The position numbers were made by a program, and so were the translations under genes. Below are positions 31,607 to 43,968 of a stretch of DNA of 64,000 nucleotides, piece after piece. Within the stretch, counting starts at the first letter, position 1. Every line of letters starts with the position of its first letter. Source of the DNA: an uncultured Pelagibacteraceae bacterium (GTDB lineage: Bacteria; Pseudomonadota; Alphaproteobacteria; Pelagibacterales; Pelagibacteraceae); NCBI GenBank assembly GCA_902596515.1, contig CACJUF010000005.1:1-64000 (forward strand). Reading direction: 5' to 3'. Below the pieces are notes generated by a model that did not search any database, was not told the DNA's origin, and saw only the letters and a list, made by a program, of their open reading frames with translations.

Positions 31607-31877
31607 CCTCATCCCCTCTAGCTTTTTTAAGCATTTTTATTTCATTTTCAATCATTTGAAATTTATGTCGATCACACAAATAGCTAAAATACTTCAAGGT
31701 ATTATATGGAAGAAAATAAAGTTTTAAAATTAGGTTAAGAATAAACTTATCTTTGTAAAATTCTTTTTTTGCCTGCATTTGAAGTTCTTTATGAGTTAAT
31801 AGCCACCCAAGGTAATTTTTCCATTCATATCTGTTTTCTAATCTTTCTTTAATTATTTCATCAAGATTATTTTTCAT
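31599..31877 (-). CDS. Small hypothetical protein of the island left module
   Basis: 92 aa from ATG 31877, which has AGGAAGG 7 nt upstream and overlaps the nuclease stop by 11 nt. The track's longer version (start 31952) would lie deep inside the nuclease gene. It is helical and aromatic-rich (EWKNYLGWLLTHKELQMQAKKEFYKDKF; LKYFSYLCDRHKFQMIENEIKML), with no recognised family. Tight overlaps on both sides mark it as part of a translationally coupled operon. Confidence 0.68.
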   Translation of the reverse strand: MKNNLDEIIKERLENRYEWKNYLGWLLTHKELQMQAKKEFYKDKFILNLILKLYFLPYNTLKYFSYLCDRHKFQMIENEIKMLKKARGDEDE

Positions 31878-32646
31878 TAGCCATCCTTCCTGCGGACACA
31901 AAATAATTACAAGTTTCACATGTTCCATTAGGTTCAGGTGGTTTATTGTCATGGAGAATATCTAAATATTTTGTGAGAACTTTCATAAAGTTTTTAAGAT
32001 CATATTTTACCTCAGTAAATTTAAATGAAAAATCTATAGAAATATTATCTGTATTTTTTAGTTCTTCAGGATAGATAAATACAAGACCTAATAAACTTGT
32101 TTTATTTATAGTAATTTTCTTTATCTTTTTTAAAGTTTCCTCAACACTTTTTTTAATTGAATCAGGTTTTTTAGCCCTACTATGTTCAGCTAAAAATTTT
32201 TCATCAGTTTCTAAATTTGAATATAATAGACTGTACCCATGAAGTTGAGGTTCGTACTCATTAATTTTTTTCTCTAGATCCTTGCTAAAATCTTTACCAT
32301 TTTTTTCTTTAAACTTAGATGTCTTATAATCAATAATACCCGAGGTTCCATCCTCGAATTTAATAATAGCATCTCCTTTTCCTTTAATTCTAAAAGGTCT
32401 ATTTTTATCATCTTTTAAAACTTTAGAAAAAAATGAAATATTAAATGGATCAATTGTTTCACCTCCTTTAATATTTTTATCGATTTTTTTTACATCTCCC
32501 AAAAAATATTCTTTTTCCATGCTGTCTAATGTTTGTGTCACTCCAGCAGAAATCATTTTAGGATAAAGATTAAAGTTTTTACCTACGTAAGCACAATGAT
32601 CACACACATATGATAATTCGCTCGGGCTAATGATGTAAGTTTTCAT
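31867..32646 (-). CDS. Cas4/RecB-like PD-(D/E)XK nuclease with putative Fe-S cysteines
   Basis: 259 aa with the RecB-type nuclease core: GKGDAIIKF (metal Asp), IIDYKTSK (D-x-K catalytic strand) and QLHGYSLLYSN (Q/Y motif). Cysteine pairs at both ends (CDHC near residue 15, CETC near 243) are arranged as in Cas4/AddB-type nucleases, where they hold a 4Fe-4S cluster. The likely activity is exonuclease or end-processing on DNA. No cas genes or CRISPR array are present, so it belongs to the element. The ATG lies at the end of the ribbon-helix-helix gene. Confidence 0.82.
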   Translation of the reverse strand: MKTYIISPSELSYVCDHCAYVGKNFNLYPKMISAGVTQTLDSMEKEYFLGDVKKIDKNIKGGETIDPFNISFFSKVLKDDKNRPFRIKGKGDAIIKFEDGTSGIIDYKTSKFKEKNGKDFSKDLEKKINEYEPQLHGYSLLYSNLETDEKFLAEHSRAKKPDSIKKSVEETLKKIKKITINKTSLLGLVFIYPEELKNTDNISIDFSFKFTEVKYDLKNFMKVLTKYLDILHDNKPPEPNGTCETCNYFVSAGRMANEK

Positions 32647-33800: not shown

Positions 33801-35351
33801 ATGTCAAATAATACGATTAATATTAGACCTGGAGTAGGATATTTATCAATATTATCAGCCATCAATTATACTCCTTGGCATGCAACAGCAGAGTTTGTAG
33901 ACAATTCTATTCAAAGTTACATAGACAACAAACCTAAACTTAGAAGACTTCACAGTAATTATAAACTTAAAATTGATATTACTGTCAACGCAGCAACAAT
34001 TGAAATAAAAGATAACGCCGTAGGAATTGGTGCAGAAAATTATGAGAGAGCCTTCCAAGCAGCAATGCGACCCAAAAAACAAACAGGTTTATCAGAATTT
34101 GGAATGGGTATGAAAACAGCTGCTTGTTGGTTTTCTAATCTTTGGACTGTAAAATCAAAAGCAGTTGGTGAAGATTTTGCAACAGAAGCAAAATTTGACA
34201 TAGAAAAAATCACTAAAGAGAAGAATGACAGATTGTCTTACAAAACTTCAAAGATGAATAAAAATTCTCATTATACAATTGTTACTCTCAAAGATCTTAA
34301 CCATAATCCAAGAGGAAAAAGTGTAGAGAGAATTAAAGATCATTTAGCCTCAATGTATAGAGCTTTCATTAATAAAGATGAAATTGAAATTAGATACAAT
34401 GGTTCATCACTAAAATACAAAGAACCAAAAATTTTAAAAGCAGTAGATATGAGAGATGTGGACGATGAGGTAATCAATCCTAAAAAAAAGATTTGGAAGA
34501 AAAAATTTGATTTCACATTCCAATGTGGGAATAAAAAACGCAAAGTCCATGGTAAAATAGGAATAAGGGAAACTATGGATGGAAAAAGAGCTGGGTTTGC
34601 TGTTTTTAGAAGAGATAGATTAATATTTGGCAGTGATGATCAACCATGGAGACCTTTGAAAATTGTAAGGCAAGAAGGTTCTGCTATTGCAAAAAGATTA
34701 TATGGAGAGTTGTATTTTGATGATGAAATGGAAGTTACTCACACAAAAGATAATTTGAATTGGTCAGAGTCAGATCAAGAATCTTTTCTTAATAAATTAA
34801 AATCTGTAATTAATTCAGATGAATTACCTATAATAAGTCAGGCCGATAGATTCAAAAAAAATGATCCAACAAATGAAAATTCTAAAGCTCAAGAAAAAGC
34901 TACTGAGTCTGCTGTCGAAAAGATAAGCAAAGCTATGAGAGCCTTAGAAGATGTTGAGGCCCCTAAAAGTGTAGAGATACCTAAGGAACTTCCAAAAACA
35001 AAAAGTAAACCTATAGTGAAAAGAAAAAAAATTCACTTTGAGGATCAAATTTGGACAGTTTATATAAAACTTAACAGAGATAAAGAAACTCATAATCAAG
35101 ATTGGTTACAGATAAGCCTTGATCCAAAGAGTAGAAAAAATAAAACTATCGAAATACAAATTATGATGAACAAGGGTTACACATCTCAATATTTTGGAGA
35201 TCAAGAGCATGAGTTAGAAGGATTGGAGTTATTAGCTTCTTATATAGCTTTAGCTGAAATAATCAGTAAAGAAAGAGGAGAAAGAAATACTCACCTAACA
35301 AGGTATTATATTAATAAGATTATTGATAGTGTGCCTCCAACAATAGATTAA
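33801..35351 (+). CDS. MORC/MutL-like GHKL ATPase of a restriction/defence system
   Basis: 516 aa. The GHKL ATPase fold occupies residues about 20-250: N box TAEFVDNSIQSY (catalytic Glu, metal Asn), G1 IKDNAVGIG, and G2 GLSEFGMGMKTAACWFS. A following S5-like half (KKKIWKKKFDFTFQCGNKKRKVHG, VRQEGSAIAKRLYGELYFDD) fits MORC/MutL relatives; the C-terminal part is unassigned. Prokaryotic MORC-like ATPases next to Z1 helicases and nucleases are a known restriction-modification/defence arrangement (Iyer, Abhiman and Aravind 2008). Such ATPases act as ATP-driven DNA clamps. The Z1 gene follows 3 nt later. Confidence 0.85.
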   Translation: MSNNTINIRPGVGYLSILSAINYTPWHATAEFVDNSIQSYIDNKPKLRRLHSNYKLKIDITVNAATIEIKDNAVGIGAENYERAFQAAMRPKKQTGLSEFGMGMKTAACWFSNLWTVKSKAVGEDFATEAKFDIEKITKEKNDRLSYKTSKMNKNSHYTIVTLKDLNHNPRGKSVERIKDHLASMYRAFINKDEIEIRYNGSSLKYKEPKILKAVDMRDVDDEVINPKKKIWKKKFDFTFQCGNKKRKVHGKIGIRETMDGKRAGFAVFRRDRLIFGSDDQPWRPLKIVRQEGSAIAKRLYGELYFDDEMEVTHTKDNLNWSESDQESFLNKLKSVINSDELPIISQADRFKKNDPTNENSKAQEKATESAVEKISKAMRALEDVEAPKSVEIPKELPKTKSKPIVKRKKIHFEDQIWTVYIKLNRDKETHNQDWLQISLDPKSRKNKTIEIQIMMNKGYTSQYFGDQEHELEGLELLASYIALAEIISKERGERNTHLTRYYINKIIDSVPPTID

Positions 35352-35354
35352 TCT

Positions 35355-37898
35355 ATGAGTGAAAAAACTGTTATTTTGGAAACTAATTCGAAAAGTAAAA
35401 AAAAAAATATAACATGGCAACCAATCCGAAATGGAAAAACTTTTTCAAAATATTTAAATCTAAACAATAAATTGGAGGAAATTGATAGAAAGAATCTTAC
35501 AGACGACTCTGTAAATCTAATTGGGCAAACTATAAATCCTAGCATAATTGATAAAGTAGGAATGAATTCAACAGGTTTATGTTTTGGTCAAATTCAAAGT
35601 GGTAAAACAACTTCTATGGAAGCAATTAGTGCTTTGGCCCATGACAATAAATTCAAAATAATCATTTTATTAACTGGTAATGTAACTCCATTAGCTAGAC
35701 AGAATACTTCAAGAGTTGATCAAGCATTACAAGGAAGAGAATGGCTGGTAATAAAGAATCTACCAAAACCTGCAGCTTGGAATAAATCTGAAAATATTAA
35801 AGAAATAAGATCGGTATTAAATTCGTATACCAGTAAAAATAAGGTAATAGCTGAAACATTTAATAAAACAATATTGATATTATCAATGAAAAATCCCTCA
35901 AAAATAAATAGGGTCACAAATTTATTTTTAGAGGCATCTTCTTGGGATAACTCGTTATATAACAAGATTCCAACCATCATAATTGATGATGAGGCAGATC
36001 ACCATTCATTAAATTCCAAAGCTAGTAAAAATACTGCTGAGGACAAAGAGGATGAAGAACTTTATAAAGTTGAAGAAGGAGAAACTTGGGAAACTTTAGC
36101 TGAAAAATTTGAAAAAAGTGTTCGAGAACTAAGGGAAATAAATCCTGATTATAAAGAGGATGAAGAATTAACATTAGGTGATTTAATTAATACAGAATAC
36201 GAAGATATTAGAACCCATAGGGCTATTAAAGATTTAAGATCAGTATTTAATTTTCATTCTTTTCTAGGATATACAGCTACACCAAATGCAAATTTGCTAA
36301 CTAATACACTAAATTTTCTTTCACCAAATTTCAGCCAAATCTTGGAGCCAGGAAGTCAATATACAGGGCTTGAATATTTTTTCGGTGAACAAAAAAGTAT
36401 TGATAGATTTATTAGTTCCATGGGAAGCCAAAAAAAGATAAAAGAGTTAGAGGACTCAGACGAGAGGCCAAAGGCTTTGGAAAATGCTTTTATGCATTTT
36501 GTTGTTAGCGTTGCATGTGGATATATTTCAGGACATTCCTCAGGAGAAAATAATAGATCCATGTTCATTCATCCAGATAGACTTCATGAGTCTCACGATC
36601 AGTACATAAGATGGATTAACGGTCTAAAAATGAAATGGGATGGAGAACTTAACGCAGATAAAAATTCAGAAGAATATAAAGATCTTATCCAATATATTAA
36701 AAAAACTCTCGAAGGTATAAGAAATAATTCAGATGACAAAAATGAGGTACCAGAATTTACAGATGAATTTATTGATTTTTTTAAACAATCTTTAAATGTA
36801 ATTAATCCAATAAGATTTAATTCGAAAGAAAGTAGTATTGAGGCTCCAGAGTGGGATAGAAAATATCCACACTTATTAGTTGGTGGTGAAGGCTTAAACA
36901 GAGGTTTCACTGTTGAGGGTATTACAGTAAGTTATTTAAGCCGAGCAGTTGGAACAAGACAACAAGATACTCTTTTGCAAAGAGCACGTTTTTTTGGGTA
37001 TCATAAAAAAAATAGAAATTTTATTAAAATTTTTTTAACTGATGAATTATCTGATTTTTTTAGAGATACATTTCATAGTGATAGAGAATTGAGAATGTCC
37101 TTAAAAAGACATTCAGAAAATCCAGAAAATAATCTTAAAGATTGGCCAAGAGTATGGATAAGCAGAAACATTGGTAATTATAAATTAACAAGACCCGGTA
37201 TAAACAATAGTTGGTCTATTGTAAGTAGAAATGTTCCCCCTCCTCCAGCAAGACAAGCTTTTGCAGCAAAAATGAGAACAGTGGACTTAGATACAAACAG
37301 AGAAATTTATAGAATTCTTAGATCAAAATATGACAATAATTTAAAAAAAATCAGTTCGATAGAGCCTGTAACAAATAACAATCCATGGGCAAAAAAGGAT
37401 GAAGCTTTAATTGTAGAAAATGTAACTCTTAAATCTATATATGAAGATGTTATATCTAAAATAAAGCATGAGGCTAGAGATATAAGACCTTTTTTCATAG
37501 CCGAACAAATTATTTCTTATTATTTGAATTCAGGAAAAGATGATCTCAATTGCCCAATAATTTTTATGGATGGTAGAAATTTCCGATCACCGGATAAAAA
37601 AGATCTAGACAGAATACAAACTGCTGGGGGTCGTGATACTAAATTAAAAAACAATCCAAATGATAAAAGCTTATTTCCAGGTGATAGACTTGTGCATTAT
37701 GAATACTTGTTTGGTCAATCTAATAATGAAAGGGCTAATTATTATCCTACCTTACAAATTTATAATCTTAAAATTTATCCCAAACCGAAGCAAGAAGGAA
37801 AACCATTAGAAAATGTACCTTATTTTAATTTTTATATGCCAAATGAATGTTGGACTGATATAATTACAGGAATTAAGAAAAGTGATATTCCTAGATAA
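35355..37898 (+). CDS. Z1-domain superfamily 2 helicase/ATPase with LysM-like insertion
   Basis: 847 aa. Walker A is GQIQSGKTTS (about residues 78-87), Walker B TIIIDDEADHHS (about 206-217), and motif III GYTATPNANLL. The Z1 signature block is LLVGGEGLNRGFTVEGITVSYLSRAVGTRQQDTLLQRARFFG, with an arginine-finger-like QRAR. Between Walker B and motif III, residues about 237-280 read YKVEEGETWETLAEKFEKSVRELREINPDY and then LTLGDLI, which looks like a LysM motif, odd for a cytosolic helicase. It is coupled to the upstream ATPase (3 nt) and the downstream nuclease (17-nt overlap). The likely role is ATP-driven DNA remodelling in phage restriction. Confidence 0.9.
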   Translation: MSEKTVILETNSKSKKKNITWQPIRNGKTFSKYLNLNNKLEEIDRKNLTDDSVNLIGQTINPSIIDKVGMNSTGLCFGQIQSGKTTSMEAISALAHDNKFKIIILLTGNVTPLARQNTSRVDQALQGREWLVIKNLPKPAAWNKSENIKEIRSVLNSYTSKNKVIAETFNKTILILSMKNPSKINRVTNLFLEASSWDNSLYNKIPTIIIDDEADHHSLNSKASKNTAEDKEDEELYKVEEGETWETLAEKFEKSVRELREINPDYKEDEELTLGDLINTEYEDIRTHRAIKDLRSVFNFHSFLGYTATPNANLLTNTLNFLSPNFSQILEPGSQYTGLEYFFGEQKSIDRFISSMGSQKKIKELEDSDERPKALENAFMHFVVSVACGYISGHSSGENNRSMFIHPDRLHESHDQYIRWINGLKMKWDGELNADKNSEEYKDLIQYIKKTLEGIRNNSDDKNEVPEFTDEFIDFFKQSLNVINPIRFNSKESSIEAPEWDRKYPHLLVGGEGLNRGFTVEGITVSYLSRAVGTRQQDTLLQRARFFGYHKKNRNFIKIFLTDELSDFFRDTFHSDRELRMSLKRHSENPENNLKDWPRVWISRNIGNYKLTRPGINNSWSIVSRNVPPPPARQAFAAKMRTVDLDTNREIYRILRSKYDNNLKKISSIEPVTNNNPWAKKDEALIVENVTLKSIYEDVISKIKHEARDIRPFFIAEQIISYYLNSGKDDLNCPIIFMDGRNFRSPDKKDLDRIQTAGGRDTKLKNNPNDKSLFPGDRLVHYEYLFGQSNNERANYYPTLQIYNLKIYPKPKQEGKPLENVPYFNFYMPNECWTDIITGIKKSDIPR

Positions 37899-38853
37899 AA
37901 TAACGAAATTAAAACCACCGATTTCTAAAGATCTTAATACATATTCTGTAAAAGAAATAAAAAAAAATTCAAATCATTTAATTGGAATTAATTTTAACAG
38001 AGAAATTGCTTTATTATTTGATACAACAAAACCATACGCAAAAGGTGATGCGCTTGAATATATTCAATTAGTACACAATCAAAAGTGCATAGTAAAAGAG
38101 GACAAAAAAGAAAAAAATAAGAATTACAGTGTACTCAAATGTAGTATTGATAATCAAAAGTTAAAAGAACTTTTTTTAAAACTTTTAGAGAATATAATCT
38201 TAGAAATTCCAGATAAAATTTCTCAAAAAGATATAACGGATTTAACAAGAGATATTTTTGATTTATTCGAAAAGATTTCTAAGCCATCAAGAGAAACGCT
38301 TATTGGCTTATGGGGAGAACTGTTTGTAATTAATTCCTCTAAAAATGCTGACGTTTTAATTCAAGCATGGCACCCTGAGACTACAGACAAATTTGATTTT
38401 TTTAATCAAAATCAAGCTTTGGAAATCAAAACAACTACCTCAAATGATAGAATTCATAATTTTTCTTATGAACAATTATACGTAGGAAATGAAAAATTAC
38501 TTATATGCTCCATAATGTTGAGACAAAACCGAGATGGTAAATCACTGGATGATTTAAGAAATGAGATTTTGGGTCGAATAAAGAATAAAAATTTAAAAGA
38601 TCAATTTGAGTTAGTTTATTATAAAACAATCGGAGAAATCTCAGAAGAAGATATCAATGAATATAAATTTGATTATTCTTATGCTGAGGAAAATATTAGA
38701 TATTTTGATCTAATTAATGTTCCAAGACTAAAAGAAAAACCAATGGCAGGTGTAAAAAAGATTAAATTTCAATCAGATCTCACTGGTATAAAGTCTGTAA
38801 ATCAATTTGATGAGGACTCCTTCTATTCAAATTTATTTCTCGAAGTTAATTAA
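37882..38853 (+). CDS. PD-(D/E)XK motif protein (DUF4420-like), nuclease of the MORC-Z1 triad
   Basis: 323 aa from a GTG start inside the Z1 gene. Family landmarks are ETLIGLWGELFVI, a preceding-strand Asp in DKFDFF, QALEIKTTTSNDR (E-x-K catalytic strand) and the RIHNFSYEQL segment. DUF4420 proteins accompany Z1 and MutL-like genes in Mza-type systems. The predicted role is the effector endonuclease. Its 3' end overlaps the convergent methyltransferase by 8 nt. Confidence 0.82.
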   Translation: MIFLDKITKLKPPISKDLNTYSVKEIKKNSNHLIGINFNREIALLFDTTKPYAKGDALEYIQLVHNQKCIVKEDKKEKNKNYSVLKCSIDNQKLKELFLKLLENIILEIPDKISQKDITDLTRDIFDLFEKISKPSRETLIGLWGELFVINSSKNADVLIQAWHPETTDKFDFFNQNQALEIKTTTSNDRIHNFSYEQLYVGNEKLLICSIMLRQNRDGKSLDDLRNEILGRIKNKNLKDQFELVYYKTIGEISEEDINEYKFDYSYAEENIRYFDLINVPRLKEKPMAGVKKIKFQSDLTGIKSVNQFDEDSFYSNLFLEVN

Positions 38854-39871
38854 AAAACTGCTTTTTAATTTCTCTTGATATAACTTTAGCTAATAAAGGT
38901 GGCACTGCATTTCCTATTAATCTCCATTGATCTCTAAAATCACCAACTAATTTATAATTATCTGGAAAAGTTTGAATTCTTTTTATCTCGTTAATTCTTA
39001 AAAATCTATTTCTCCAATGGAATGGGCCCATGTTATTTGAAAAGCTAGCTTGAATAGTCCAAGAAGGTTCTTTTGGAGAAAGCTTTAATAAGAAAGACCA
39101 ATATCTTGATCGCCATTTAAACTCAGGTTTAGGATGCCCTCTTTCTTTGGTAAAAAAAAGATAATTCTCTCCGGGAGGTATTAATTTAAGTAAATGTTTA
39201 TGCTTTGAACCAGCTAAATTATTTTTGTCTTCGGGTAACTTTGTATCTAAGTCACCAATAGCTACTTTACAATTAACCCATTTTGCTTTCTTAAAAAGTA
39301 AATTATTTTCTTTTACTTTTGAATGAGTTGACTCGGGGAAATCAAATTTCCCTAATTCCTTTAACGTTCCAACACATATAAACCTTTGTCGAATTTGTGG
39401 AACACCATAATCTGCACAATTTATAACTTGATGAGATAAATTATAACCTGCTTTTTTACATTCACTTTCAAAAAAATCTAAAGCTGGTTTATGAGGTTTA
39501 AAAAAGAAACCATGAACATTTTCGAAAAAAAATACTTTTGGTTTTATTATTTTTAAAGCCTTACAAAAATACACTAGAGTATAAGAGTCTTCATCTTCTA
39601 AAGCTCTTTTCTTCTCTTTGATATAAAATCTTGATTTTGAATAGGGAGGACAAGGAGGTCCGCCAACAACAATATCAACCTTACCTTTAAATTTTGAGAA
39701 ATTTATATCTTTGATATCAGAACAAATTACATTTTTTGAAATCTTATTTTTCTTAAGTGTATCACAGGCTATATTCCAATTATCTACAGCTGCATATGTT
39801 TCAAATGAATTACTTTTAAAACCGATATCAATTCCACCTGCCCCAGAAAATAAACTTAAGATTTTATTCAT
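38846..39871 (-). CDS. DNA (cytosine-5) methyltransferase 1 of the island
   Basis: 341 aa with the m5C methyltransferase motif order: SLFSGAGGIDIGF (I, SAM), IVVGGPPCPPYS (IV, catalytic Cys; PPYS instead of the usual QPFS), FENVHGF (VI), DYGVPQIRQRFICVG (VIII), a recognition region, and IQTFPDNY with IGNAVPP (IX/X). The pre-motif IX region (PGENYLFF, SRYWSFLLKLSPKEPSWTIQA, GPFHWRNRFLR) is similar to that of the second methyltransferase at 40409, so the two are paralogues. It is antiparallel to the nuclease gene and divergent from the 171-aa gene. Confidence 0.93.
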   Translation of the reverse strand: MNKILSLFSGAGGIDIGFKSNSFETYAAVDNWNIACDTLKKNKISKNVICSDIKDINFSKFKGKVDIVVGGPPCPPYSKSRFYIKEKKRALEDEDSYTLVYFCKALKIIKPKVFFFENVHGFFFKPHKPALDFFESECKKAGYNLSHQVINCADYGVPQIRQRFICVGTLKELGKFDFPESTHSKVKENNLLFKKAKWVNCKVAIGDLDTKLPEDKNNLAGSKHKHLLKLIPPGENYLFFTKERGHPKPEFKWRSRYWSFLLKLSPKEPSWTIQASFSNNMGPFHWRNRFLRINEIKRIQTFPDNYKLVGDFRDQWRLIGNAVPPLLAKVISREIKKQFFN

Positions 39872-39904: not shown

Positions 39905-40420
39905 ATGTTGGCTAGCTCGATTTTTGATTACTTAAAAAATAAAAAATCTATATTAAAGGTTGAAAAAAACTCTAACCCATTCAAATTTAGCTATAAACAC
40001 AATAAATTTTCTTTATGTCTCAAAAATATTGGTTTTGCCTACAGAACAAATTTAGATGAATACAGAGTTCAAATAGGGGAAAAATTTAGAGAACAATTAA
40101 AAAGTTATCATCTTCAGGGTTATTGGGCTTTAATTTTAGGTTACCATAAAAAATCAAATACATATGTTGCTTGGGACAATAAACTTTTATTTAGCTCTAA
40201 AGCAAAAAATAGATCACTTTATACAAGATCAAGCATTTGTGATAGGACTGCAGAATCTTGTTTTGAGCACTATAGATATAAAGATAATCTAATTAAAGAG
40301 GAGACTGTCTCAATTAATTTTAAAGGCAAACATCTTGGACTGTACTTAGATCAAATCAAAACTTTAAATATTCATGAGTATAAAAGTTTTATAAATTTTT
40401 ACAGGAACTTAGATATTTGA
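39905..40420 (+). CDS. 171-aa protein between two m5C methyltransferases, candidate restriction partner
   Basis: No certain family. The block RTNLDEYRVQIGEKF followed by ALILGYHKKSNTYVAWDNKL and NRSLYTRSS resembles, from memory, an N-terminal domain seen in restriction endonucleases beside Dcm-type methylases (DE-R-Q, then LLGY and V-WD). No full PD-(D/E)XK or HNH site is visible, so it may be a recognition subunit acting with the DUF4420 nuclease. It is divergent from methyltransferase 1 and overlaps methyltransferase 2 by 12 nt tail to tail. Confidence 0.65.
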   Translation: MLASSIFDYLKNKKSILKVEKNSNPFKFSYKHNKFSLCLKNIGFAYRTNLDEYRVQIGEKFREQLKSYHLQGYWALILGYHKKSNTYVAWDNKLLFSSKAKNRSLYTRSSICDRTAESCFEHYRYKDNLIKEETVSINFKGKHLGLYLDQIKTLNIHEYKSFINFYRNLDI

Positions 40421-41452
40421 AACTAAATATTTTACCATTGCCTTACCCATCAATGGAGGTACTGCATTACCTATCTGTCTTTGTATAGATCTTCTATTAC
40501 CAAAAAATTTATAATTTTTAGGAAAAGTTTGTATAGCTGCTATCTCAGGAACTCTCAGTCTTCTATTAGTCCAGTGGAAAGGGCCAACCCAAGGACCAGG
40601 TTGCGCAGCTATTGTCCAAGATGGAAGATCTGCTTTTAACTTTAATAAGAAATTCCAAAATCTTGTATTTTTTTTAAAATTTGATTTTTTACCATCACAT
40701 AATGCAAGGTAGTTTTCACCAGGTTTTACCTTTTTTAATTCTTTATAATAAGTTCCAAGATTTGTTTTTTCATGCTCTTCCTCATAAATATCTTGATCAA
40801 ATTCTTCAATATGTTTACCGACTGTTTCGTAAGGTTTTAAGTTTTTATTAAATAAGTCTGGTTTATTAGGATCATAGTGAGTTTTTTGAGGCTCTTCATT
40901 ATTGAATTCTTTTTTGGAACCCATAAAAAAAACTCTTTTTCTTTTTTGAGGAACACCATAGTCCAAAGCATTGGCTTTAACCATTTTAAAATTATAATTA
41001 AATTTTTTTGTTTTTCTTAAAATAGTCTCTACTGCTTTTTTATTTGTAGGATGTAAAATACTTTCAACATTTTCAATCAAAAAGCCATCAGGATTTATTT
41101 CATCAATAAATTTGAAAAAATCATCAATACAATTTCTTGGATCCTTAGTAATTTTTCTATTTTCATTGGTTATCCAGTAACCATTTTTGGAAAAAGGCTG
41201 GCAAGGTGGACCACCTATAATTATAGTCTTGTTGCCATTTAAATATTTTTCTATTTCTTTAATTTTTGTCTTTTTAATATCATCTTTGATTATTTTTGTT
41301 TCTTTGAATTCTGAATTTAATTCGAGTGTTCTCACAGAATCTTCATCATTATCTATCGATACTTTCAATTTGATATTATTTTGTTTAGCGCCTATATCTA
41401 AACCTCCTGCACCAGAAAATAAACTAATAGCTTGTATATTTGTATTTTTCAT
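40409..41452 (-). CDS. DNA (cytosine-5) methyltransferase 2 of the island
   Basis: About 347 aa. Motifs are SLFSGAGGLDIG (I), IIIGGPPCQPFSKNG (IV), IENVESI (VI), DYGVPQKRKRVFFMG (VIII), then PGENYLAL, WTIAAQPGPWVGPFHWTNRRLRVPEIAAIQTFP (IX region) and IGNAVPPLMGKAM (X). I prefer ATG 41452 to the track's 41470 because an extended -10 (TGGTATAAT on the minus strand) lies immediately before 41470, leaving no room for a transcript start. All catalytic residues are intact. It is the last island gene before the displaced tRNA half. Confidence 0.94.
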   Translation of the reverse strand: MKNTNIQAISLFSGAGGLDIGAKQNNIKLKVSIDNDEDSVRTLELNSEFKETKIIKDDIKKTKIKEIEKYLNGNKTIIIGGPPCQPFSKNGYWITNENRKITKDPRNCIDDFFKFIDEINPDGFLIENVESILHPTNKKAVETILRKTKKFNYNFKMVKANALDYGVPQKRKRVFFMGSKKEFNNEEPQKTHYDPNKPDLFNKNLKPYETVGKHIEEFDQDIYEEEHEKTNLGTYYKELKKVKPGENYLALCDGKKSNFKKNTRFWNFLLKLKADLPSWTIAAQPGPWVGPFHWTNRRLRVPEIAAIQTFPKNYKFFGNRRSIQRQIGNAVPPLMGKAMVKYLVSNI

Positions 41453-41504
41453 AATGAGTCGTTTTATCATTATACCACAAATTATAATTGCCCTGATAAT
41501 TAGG

Positions 41505-41890: not shown

Positions 41891-42976
41891 ATGAAAAAAA
41901 ATATTTTTTTTTTACTACCAGTATTCACCTACGGAGCTGGCCAATCTATTAAGAGAATTATATTAGATCTCAACCATAAAAAGTATAATAAAAACATAAT
42001 TTGTTTAGGAAAATGTCAGTTTAAAAAAGAACTTTTAAAGAAAAAAGTAAAAGTTTATGAATTAAATCATAAAAAATTATTATTTGCTATTACTGATATA
42101 AGAAAAATTTTAGAAAGTAATAAAATCAATAAAAAAATACTAATATCAAATATTCATTACACTAATGTTTTAAGTCTGTTATTTTTTTCTAAAATTAAAG
42201 AATTAAAAATTATTGTAACAGAAAGAACTGCGATAAGAGAATTAGATATTTATTTTGGTTTAATAGATTTTTTTAAAAAGAAGATAATAAAATTATTAGT
42301 TAAAATCTTATATAAAAAAGCTGACGCTATAATTACTAACTCTACAAAATCATCAAAAGATTTAGCTAAAATTGTAAAATTGAAAATTAACACAATATTT
42401 TCCCCATCTTATATTCCAAGTAATTTTAAAGTGAGAAAAAATAGAAATAGAAATAAAATAATAATCGTAGTATCCAGACTTTCTCAGGAAAAAAATATAA
42501 TATATATATTAAAGGCAATAAATTTAATCAAAGATAAAAAATTTATTTTAAAAATAATTGGTGACGGGGAACAAAAAAAAGAGTTGGTAAATTTTGTATA
42601 CAGAAATCAATTATCAAAAAAAGTAAAATTTTTGGATTATAAAAAAAATGTAAAAAAATTTTTTTTAGAGTCTGATCTCTTTATTAATAGCTCATTTTTT
42701 GAAGGTTTTCCTAATGCAGTTGTGGAATCCTTAAAGTATAATGTTCCTGTGATTTGTTCAAAAAGCCATGGAGGTATATTTGATATTTTAAAAAATAATA
42801 GATATGGATATTTATTTGATTTACATAAAATTGAAAATTTATCATCCATAATCTTAAAATTTTTAAATAATAGCAGTAATTTTTTAAAAAAAACTAAAAA
42901 TGCTCAAAATAATTTAAAACGATTTTCAATTAAAAAATCTGTTTTAGATTACGAAAAATTATTAGATAAACTATAA
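41891..42976 (+). CDS. Family 4 (GT-B) glycosyltransferase
   Basis: 361 aa. The C-terminal Glycos_transf_1 domain is clear: IIVVSRLSQEKNI, KIIGDGEQKKELVNFV, and the E-x7-E donor site in FFEGFPNAVVESLKYNVPVICSK. The N-terminal domain has FTYGAGQSIKRII. It probably adds a sugar to a surface polysaccharide in the cytoplasm. It is the first gene after the island scar and opens the polysaccharide cassette. Acceptor and donor are unknown. Confidence 0.88.
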   Translation: MKKNIFFLLPVFTYGAGQSIKRIILDLNHKKYNKNIICLGKCQFKKELLKKKVKVYELNHKKLLFAITDIRKILESNKINKKILISNIHYTNVLSLLFFSKIKELKIIVTERTAIRELDIYFGLIDFFKKKIIKLLVKILYKKADAIITNSTKSSKDLAKIVKLKINTIFSPSYIPSNFKVRKNRNRNKIIIVVSRLSQEKNIIYILKAINLIKDKKFILKIIGDGEQKKELVNFVYRNQLSKKVKFLDYKKNVKKFFLESDLFINSSFFEGFPNAVVESLKYNVPVICSKSHGGIFDILKNNRYGYLFDLHKIENLSSIILKFLNNSSNFLKKTKNAQNNLKRFSIKKSVLDYEKLLDKL

Positions 42977-43026
42977 CTATTACTTCCAAACAAAGGGTGA
43001 TTTTAACGAATGATCTTTATTGATAC

Positions 43027-43968
43027 TCACTTTTTGAATTTAAAAATTTTCATTATTTTTTTATAAAAATTTAATGTAATTCTTCCAAAAAAAATAAATA
43101 GTATTGCACCTGTGCTCTGTTTGTTATGAAGTCGAATTTTTAACTCATTTATTAATGCAGAAAAAAAGCTAACTTTACTTGAGAAATTACTGTTTCCAAG
43201 ATCCCCAAAAACCTCATCACTCTTGGTTCTTATTCCTTTCATTTTATTTGTAACAATAATTCTATATAGCCAGTCATAATCAGATTGTATTTTATAATTA
43301 ATATTTAAAAGTCCTACTTTCCGAAGTGATGTTGACCTAATATAAAAACCTACTACTGTAGAAGGTATAATATTAAATTGTCTTGATATATCCTCGGGTC
43401 TAAAACCTGCGTAAATTTTATTATCTTTTTTGACAGTTCCACATAAAAAATCCATATCTATATTTTCAAAAATATATTTTTTTAATATATCTAATGAATT
43501 TGGATATAAAATATTCGAGGAGTCTACTATGCCCACAAAATCTCCTCGAGCTAATACAAAACCTTTATTCCAAGCGTCCCAGAGATTTTTATCTTTTTCA
43601 CTTACCCAAATATCAATCTCATCACCGTATTCTTTAAAGATGTTTATAGTTTCGTCCCCAGAATTTCCATCAATAATAATCAATTCAATATTGGAATAAT
43701 TTTGATTTAAAATAGAGTCAATCGATTTTGATATATTTTTTTCTTTAAAATTTGGCATTACAATTGAAATTAAAGGAAACCCATTTAATGAGTTTTTAAA
43801 ATGACCGTTATATCTTGCACCTCCGCAAACTTTCTTATTTTCAGATAATTTTTCTGGAAATAACATACTAGAAAATCTATCATCTTGACGGGCTGATAAA
43901 ATTTTGGCTTCCTTAAAAAAAAATTTAATTTTTCCAAATTTATTAGTCTTTTTTATAATGTTTTCCAC
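43027..43968 (-). CDS. Family 2 (GT-A) glycosyltransferase
   Basis: 313 aa. Residues about 68-200 are a GT2 domain: PLISIVMPNFKEKNISKSIDSILNQNYSNIELIIIDGNSGD, then DAWNKGFVLARGDFVGIVDSSN. The metal-binding DxD site is unusual (DSSN). A 65-residue N-terminal extension and a basic, hydrophobic C-terminal end (GAILFIFFGRITLNFYKKIMKIF) suggest membrane association. It is alone on the minus strand in the cassette. The specific reaction is unknown. Confidence 0.85.
   Translation of the reverse strand: MENIIKKTNKFGKIKFFFKEAKILSARQDDRFSSMLFPEKLSENKKVCGGARYNGHFKNSLNGFPLISIVMPNFKEKNISKSIDSILNQNYSNIELIIIDGNSGDETINIFKEYGDEIDIWVSEKDKNLWDAWNKGFVLARGDFVGIVDSSNILYPNSLDILKKYIFENIDMDFLCGTVKKDNKIYAGFRPEDISRQFNIIPSTVVGFYIRSTSLRKVGLLNINYKIQSDYDWLYRIIVTNKMKGIRTKSDEVFGDLGNSNFSSKVSFFSALINELKIRLHNKQSTGAILFIFFGRITLNFYKKIMKIFKFKK

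What the first reader, a model, noticed from the sequence alone, without database searches (positions are those of the whole stretch)
36063..36191. LysM-like motif inserted inside a Z1 helicase
Residues about 237-280 of the Z1 protein read YKVEEGETWETLAEKFEKSVRELREINPDY...LTLGDLI, matching the LysM pattern (Y-V--GDT---IA-K--VSV-EL---N---...L--G--L). It sits between Walker B and the TATP motif. LysM normally binds N-acetylglucosamine polymers outside the cell. In a cytosolic defence helicase it could sense a phage or cell-wall-derived ligand, or be a repurposed binding module that gates ATPase activity.
Basis: partly seen in the sequence, partly recalled or inferred. Interest (0 to 1): 0.7.

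Follow-up and report, generated by a model that had tools for sequence, protein, structure and literature searches.

The report
Real LysM domain inside defence helicase
A small domain that normally grips cell-wall sugars outside the cell has been built, apparently once, into the motor of a DNA-restriction-like helicase in SAR11 ocean bacteria and kept in every relative examined; what it binds there is unknown.

Summary
Residues 237-280 of the 847-aa Z1 helicase (window 36063-36194) form a bona fide LysM domain, inserted between Walker B and the TATP motif. Alone the window copy is borderline (Pfam E 8e-4), but 16 of 17 SAR11 homologues' inserts match LysM (best 6e-8). Their profile finds solved LysM domains down to E 2.5e-20, and AlphaFold gives beta-alpha-alpha-beta, closest to solved LysM domains (rmsd 1.1-1.9 A).

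The insert is clade-specific. All 18 SAR11 (Pelagibacteraceae) Z1 proteins of this family carry it and the non-SAR11 homologues inspected do not: one change on a tree, 100% SH-aLRT support. It is under purifying selection, acidic, and the only LysM above cut-off in this genome.

The host system is a MORC-Z1-nuclease-Dcm restriction-like operon, a class described in 2008. The LysM stays when the nuclease type is swapped, so it is not tied to DUF4420.

Glycan or phage-ligand sensing is untested. Acidic charge, a variable-length groove loop and intracellular precedents (Kbp, mitoribosomal uS10m) favour a protein-docking or gating module. This is a new domain architecture within a known kind of system; the function is inferred, not shown.

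The parts
36063..36194 (+). LysM domain, residues 237-280 of the Z1 protein: strand 237-238, helix 245-251, helix 256-262, strand 277-278
   Evidence: Pfam LysM; profile against PDB 2.5e-20; AlphaFold; Foldseek
36018..36203 (+). whole SAR11-specific insert, residues about 222-283 (linker plus LysM), absent from non-SAR11 homologues
   Evidence: distance from Walker B to TATP 102-116 aa against mostly 46; clade-specific columns 235-277
35355..37898 (+). Z1-domain superfamily 2 helicase/translocase, 847 aa, motor motifs intact
   Evidence: Pfam Z1 5.4e-33; PADLOC Helicase_II and MzaC partial; best aligned solved folds are SF2 motors such as Type ISP LlaBIII and RIG-I
35586..35609 (+). Walker A, residues 78-85 (GQIQSGKT)
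   Evidence: invariant G78, Q81-T85 in 73 homologues
35985..35999 (+). Walker B, residues 211-215 (DDEAD)
   Evidence: invariant D211, D212, E213, D215
36273..36284 (+). motif III, residues 307-310 (TATP)
   Evidence: invariant T307-P310
36477..37121 (+). Z1 domain (residues 375-589), including QRARFFGY at 542-549
   Evidence: Pfam Z1; invariant Q542, R543, R545, F546, G548, Y549
33801..35351 (+). MORC/GHKL ATPase, 516 aa, immediately upstream
   Evidence: HATPase_c_3 5.4e-17, Morc6_S5 weak; upstream of Z1 in all SAR11 loci and nearly all others
37882..38853 (+). DUF4420 PD-(D/E)XK nuclease, 323 aa, overlapping the 3' end of Z1
   Evidence: Pfam DUF4420 4e-33; replaced by an MTaX1-nuclease gene in some SAR11 loci
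38846..39871 (-). Dcm-type C5-cytosine methyltransferase 1
   Evidence: Pfam DNA_methylase 1.7e-62
39905..40420 (+). MTaX1 domain protein, 171 aa
   Evidence: Pfam MTaX1 7.4e-11
40409..41470 (-). Dcm-type C5-cytosine methyltransferase 2
   Evidence: Pfam DNA_methylase 2.9e-56

Best explanation
Shown: a LysM domain has been inserted into a tolerant loop between motif II (Walker B) and motif III (TATP) of the first RecA domain of the Z1 translocase. The translocase belongs to a MORC-Z1-nuclease-Dcm restriction-like system of SAR11 bacteria. The tree is consistent with one insertion on the SAR11 branch, kept since under purifying selection. Inferred: it works as an intracellular docking and gating module. 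It would contact another surface of the same motor, the Z1 dimer partner, or the co-encoded MORC ATPase. Because it sits between the ATP-hydrolysis motif and the coupling motif, engagement or release of this contact would control when the motor hydrolyses ATP and translocates, and hence when the nuclease is licensed to cut DNA lacking the host's cytosine methylation. The clearest precedent is the cytoplasmic protein Kbp, in which an acidic LysM interacts with a BON domain to switch conformation; the mitoribosomal uS10m LysM is another LysM inside a cell compartment.
For: Fold and sequence identity of LysM. Insert with one change on the tree, 18 of 18 kept over about 9.5 substitutions per column of summed branch length. 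Purifying selection: dN/dS 0.08-0.28 in the LysM in pairs with measurable dS, 0.09-0.16 in the rest. Position between motifs II and III. Bacteroidetes homologues carry a 10-13 residue insertion at the same point, so the loop tolerates insertion. Acidic in 17 of 17, so unlikely to bind DNA itself. Kept when DUF4420 is replaced by an MTaX1 nuclease, so tied to the motor or MORC rather than to one nuclease. In the Z1-containing enzyme CglI the motor domain binds the nuclease and the Z1 domain dimerises (PMC4267653). Kbp LysM interacts with BON, and changing its acidic residues weakens the response (PMC5681659).
Against: No partner has been shown. MORC in SAR11 has no matching clade-specific insert. 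LysM diverges slightly faster than the rest of the protein (mean pairwise identity 33% against 38%), which a conserved docking surface need not do. No inter-domain geometry was available, so contacts of the LysM in the model could not be read. Defence activity of this operon class is predicted from context, not measured here.
Confidence: 0.45

Rival explanations
1. The LysM is a ligand sensor: it binds a GlcNAc-containing molecule (muropeptides or peptidoglycan fragments in the cytosol, or a sugar on hypermodified phage DNA), and binding switches the motor on.
For: LysM domains as a family bind GlcNAc polymers (general knowledge); the closest solved relatives of the insert by profile and fold include peptidoglycan and chitin binders; the G-[DE]-T turn and the L...N...G hallmark residues are kept in most copies.
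Against: All 17 inserts are acidic, awkward for approaching DNA. The groove loop between helix 2 and strand 2 varies from 9 to 14 residues and in sequence, so a conserved sugar site is doubtful. A single LysM usually binds glycan weakly (general knowledge). Groove residues were not compared with solved complexes.
Confidence: 0.15
2. The insert is functionally neutral: a compact domain captured in a permissive loop and retained because removal would now disturb folding, without a ligand or partner.
For: The loop tolerates other insertions in Bacteroidetes; the insert diverges slightly faster than the core.
Against: 18 of 18 kept without loss across proteins down to about 29% identity and dN/dS well below 1, in genomes known for streamlining (general knowledge).
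Confidence: 0.28
3. The LysM detects a phage protein, for example a phage structural or lysis component, as an infection trigger.
For: The best PHROG matches of the inserts are phage lysM-motif and lysis families, so such domains occur on both sides; defence genes often sense phage proteins (general knowledge).
Against: The PHROG match only shows that phages also encode LysM domains; no binding partner is known.
Confidence: 0.1
4. The LysM-like pattern is a chance resemblance in ordinary Z1 sequence.
For: The window copy alone is marginal (8e-4, below the curated cut-off).
Against: 16 of 17 homologous inserts match, profile E 2.5e-20 to a solved LysM, the predicted fold is LysM, and other Z1 proteins lack the segment.
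Confidence: 0.02

Closest known systems
LysM domain (Pfam PF01476, CBM50)
   Same: Sequence profile, length of about 44 residues, beta-alpha-alpha-beta fold, hallmark residues
   Different: Inserted within a helicase motor domain inside the cell, single, acidic; typical members are extracytoplasmic, often tandem, and bind GlcNAc polymers
MORC-Z1 helicase-RE-fold nuclease-Dcm operons (third operon type of Iyer, Abhiman and Aravind 2008, PMC2292703)
   Same: MORC ATPase, SF2 helicase with the DThhQXuRhFG (Z1) motif, RE-fold gene and cytosine methylase in one neighbourhood; the paper's Figure 2 legend lists Candidatus Pelagibacter among its species
   Different: The word LysM does not occur in that paper's main text; the SAR11 helicases carry the LysM insert
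MZA defence system (PADLOC MzaC, MzaD)
   Same: Z1 helicase and DUF4420-like protein give partial matches (MzaC 4.3e-18, MzaD 5e-4)
   Different: Matches are partial and the MORC protein has no PADLOC match; no full set of genes
CglI/NgoAVII N-protein (DEAD-Z1 restriction motor, PMC4267653)
   Same: SF2 motor plus Z1 domain working with a separate nuclease and a methyltransferase
   Different: Different nuclease (PLD-B3); the word LysM does not occur in that paper
Kbp (YgaU), cytoplasmic BON-LysM potassium sensor
   Same: A LysM whose acidic residues matter, used inside the cell as a docking partner in a conformational switch (PMC5681659)
   Different: Not a helicase or defence protein; sequence match of the insert profile to Kbp is weak (E 0.48)

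Membership tests
LysM domain (PF01476) | Sequence profile match | tested here: met
   16 of 17 inserts, best 5.8e-8; profile to PDB LysM 2.5e-20
LysM domain (PF01476) | beta-alpha-alpha-beta fold of about 45 residues | tested here: met
   AlphaFold; Foldseek matches nearly all LysM, rmsd 1.1-1.9 A over about 44 residues, probability near 1, though E-values are 0.06 and up because the domain is short
LysM domain (PF01476) | Binding to GlcNAc-containing glycans | not testable with these tools
   needs a binding assay
LysM domain (PF01476) | Extracytoplasmic location (usual, not obligatory, so not a bar to membership) | tested here: inconclusive
   Inserted within a helicase motor; the N-terminus MSEKTVILETNSKSKKKN shows no signal peptide by eye; location not measured, but a cytosolic site is implied
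Z1-domain SF2 helicase | Z1 domain plus intact Walker A, Walker B and TATP motifs | tested here: met
   Pfam Z1 5.4e-33; invariant motifs
MORC-Z1-nuclease-Dcm restriction-like operon | MORC ATPase, Z1 helicase, RE-fold nuclease and cytosine methylase adjacent | tested here: met
MORC-Z1-nuclease-Dcm restriction-like operon | Restricts phage or unmethylated DNA | not testable with these tools
   needs experiment
MZA system (PADLOC) | Full Mza gene set | tested here: not met
   only partial MzaC and MzaD matches; MORC protein unmatched

The most novel reading that the evidence does not exclude
The LysM is a true intracellular pattern-recognition module: it binds a GlcNAc-bearing ligand (cytosolic muropeptides released during infection, or glycosylated phage DNA) and gates a restriction translocase, a lectin-like sensor wired directly into a DNA-restriction motor.
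Probability: 0.12. Interest if true: 0.85.

Novelty: new variant of a known kind. Interest (0 to 1): 0.56.

Why it matters
LysM is a textbook extracellular glycan-binding module. A clade-wide, selectively maintained LysM inside the ATPase core of a predicted defence helicase suggests that the fold has been recruited for intracellular control, in organisms that otherwise discard spare sequence. It gives a defined element of about 60 residues whose removal, guided by natural homologues without it, would directly test how Z1 motors of MORC-type restriction systems are regulated.

Tried and rejected
Chance resemblance: rejected by the family profile and fold.

General feature of Z1 proteins: rejected. 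The insert is missing from the non-SAR11 loci read directly, and profile scans of 385 class-level and 398 phylum-level genomes found no further Z1 protein covering the whole motif II-LysM-motif III stretch; apart from one Z1-like match to the end of the stretch (G741), they rang on LysM parts of other proteins.

Partner is DUF4420: unlikely, since the LysM persists where that gene is replaced. A reciprocal clade-specific insert in MORC: looked for, none longer than four columns.

Searches that led nowhere: single-sequence scans of genome contigs and viral contigs found no relatives; solved structures by sequence for the full protein gave none; literature searches for LysM with anti-phage helicases or SAR11 gave nothing relevant in the open library, and the search for GlcNAc-modified phage DNA gave only two review-type papers. 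Phage and plasmid records hold only partial matches to the protein.

Diversifying selection on the LysM: not supported; dN/dS is below 0.3 in every pair with measurable dS, though dS is saturated in several pairs.

Full report
Observation. The ORF 35355-37898(+) encodes an 847-aa protein with a Z1 domain (Pfam 5.4e-33) and intact helicase motifs: Walker A at residues 78-85, Walker B at 211-215, TATP at 307-310 and QRARFFGY at 542-549, all invariant or nearly so in 73 homologues.

Is it a LysM? On the whole window protein Pfam LysM scores 19.7 bits, E 8.1e-4, just under the cut-off; on the isolated segment 22.3 bits, over it; in the whole-genome scan 21.8 bits, over it and the only LysM above cut-off in this 92%-complete genome. 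Family evidence settles the matter. Eight of nine full-length SAR11 homologues match LysM, best 3.9e-7; 16 of 17 isolated inserts match, best 5.8e-8. A profile of those inserts finds solved LysM domains in the PDB, from LytE at 2.5e-20 through NlpC/P60 at 3e-13, Ecp6 at 3e-11 and AtlA at 5e-9. AlphaFold of the full protein (mean pLDDT 87.7, pTM 0.84) gives strand 237-238, helix 245-251, helix 256-262, strand 277-278 at local pLDDT about 90. The isolated segment (mean pLDDT 79) matches LysM domains in nearly all of its best 30 Foldseek hits, with rmsd 1.1-2.0 A over about 44 residues and probability near 1; E-values are 0.06 and up, as expected for so short a domain. Several of those hits are a LysM of the trypanosome mitoribosomal protein uS10m, itself an intracellular LysM.

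Is it an insert? The distance from Walker B to TATP is 102-116 aa in the SAR11 (Pelagibacteraceae) loci and 46 aa in most other members of the family; Bacteroidetes members have 56-59 at the same point, and a few distant viral-contig proteins up to 68 (three larger printed gaps, L069, L073 and L104, start at an upstream acidic motif, and the true distance there is also 46). On a tree built without the insert columns the 18 LysM-bearing proteins are one side of one branch, 100% SH-aLRT, one change (quick method, with long branches that the tool flags; a count of changes cannot by itself tell gain from loss, but the wide spread of the short form favours gain in SAR11). Profile scans with the motif II-LysM-motif III stretch over 385 class-level and 398 phylum-level genomes found full coverage only in the window's own genome; elsewhere they picked up the LysM portion of other proteins. 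Other Z1 proteins in SAR11 genomes, of a more distant type, lack the insert. Caveat: of 420 confirmed genome-contig loci only the best 80 were kept, so rare LysM-Z1 proteins elsewhere are not excluded.

Selection. In the six pairs with measurable synonymous divergence, dN/dS in the LysM is 0.08-0.28, against 0.09-0.16 for the rest of the protein (dS is saturated in the other pairs). Mean pairwise identity is 33% in the LysM and 38% in the rest. No loss was seen over about 9.5 substitutions per column of summed branch length in the clade (my sum of the branch lengths). It is therefore maintained, at a slightly relaxed rate.

Chemistry. All 17 inserts are acidic, net -1 to -9. The loop from the invariant Asn to the conserved Gly, part of the canonical groove, is 9-14 residues long (counted on the alignment). 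The most conserved positions are structural hallmarks: L259, N263, G275. I did not compare groove residues with solved LysM-GlcNAc complexes.

Context. The operon is MORC/GHKL ATPase (33801-35351), Z1 (35355-37898), DUF4420 PD-(D/E)XK nuclease (37882-38853), with two Dcm-type methylases and an MTaX1 gene beside it. Non-SAR11 loci have the same genes, usually as Dcm-MORC-Z1-DUF4420. This is the third operon type of Iyer, Abhiman and Aravind 2008 (PMC2292703), whose text does not contain the word LysM. In several SAR11 loci DUF4420 is replaced by a protein of about 500 aa with an N-terminal MTaX1 domain and a C-terminal FEVKTF motif that looks like a PD-(D/E)XK nuclease (motif read by eye), yet the LysM is kept. 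So the LysM is tied to the motor or to MORC rather than to one nuclease. MORC itself shows no matching clade-specific insert.

Mechanism. In the related Z1-containing enzyme CglI, the motor domain contacts the nuclease and Z1 dimerises (PMC4267653). The best aligned solved folds of the whole model are SF2 motors, including the Type ISP restriction enzyme LlaBIII (Z 15.7, rmsd 4.9 A over 359 residues) and RIG-I. An insertion between motifs II and III is well placed to influence coupling of ATP hydrolysis to movement. The nearest functional precedent is Kbp, where a LysM interacts with a BON domain in a potassium-dependent switch and changing its acidic residues weakens the response (PMC5681659). 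I therefore favour an intracellular docking or gating role (0.45) over a neutral insert (0.28), ligand sensing (0.15) and phage-protein sensing (0.10). None of these functions is shown.

Verdict. The glycan-sensing reading remains open but is not favoured. The architecture was not found in the open literature searched; it is a new variant within a known kind of system.

Noticed in passing
window 33801-38853 compared with L034, L035, L036: The MORC-Z1-DUF4420 block diverges sharply while its flanks are nearly identical: in L034 Dcm1 is 99%, MTaX1 99%, Dcm2 98% and the upstream 112-aa gene 94% identical, but Z1 is 41% and DUF4420 43%. This looks like allelic exchange of the effector block between shared methylases.
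   Followed up: partly
L041 11569-13116, L047 10524-12014: DUF4420 is replaced next to Z1 by a protein of about 500 aa with an N-terminal MTaX1 domain and a C-terminal FEVKTF motif resembling a PD-(D/E)XK nuclease; the 171-aa MTaX1 gene of the window (39905-40420) may be a shortened relative.
   Followed up: partly
window 31867-32646 (-): A 259-aa PD-(D/E)XK protein (Pfam PDDEXK_1 3.9e-6) lies near the operon and recurs beside several of the SAR11 loci.
   Followed up: no
L130 973-2169 (-): A 398-aa SAR11 protein with three LysM domains (37, 31 and 21 bits), apparently secreted, next to a gene that looks like a pilus-assembly component (read by eye).
   Followed up: no
window 41891-43968: Glycosyltransferase-like genes follow the defence genes, suggesting a variable surface-polysaccharide region (read by eye).
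   Followed up: no
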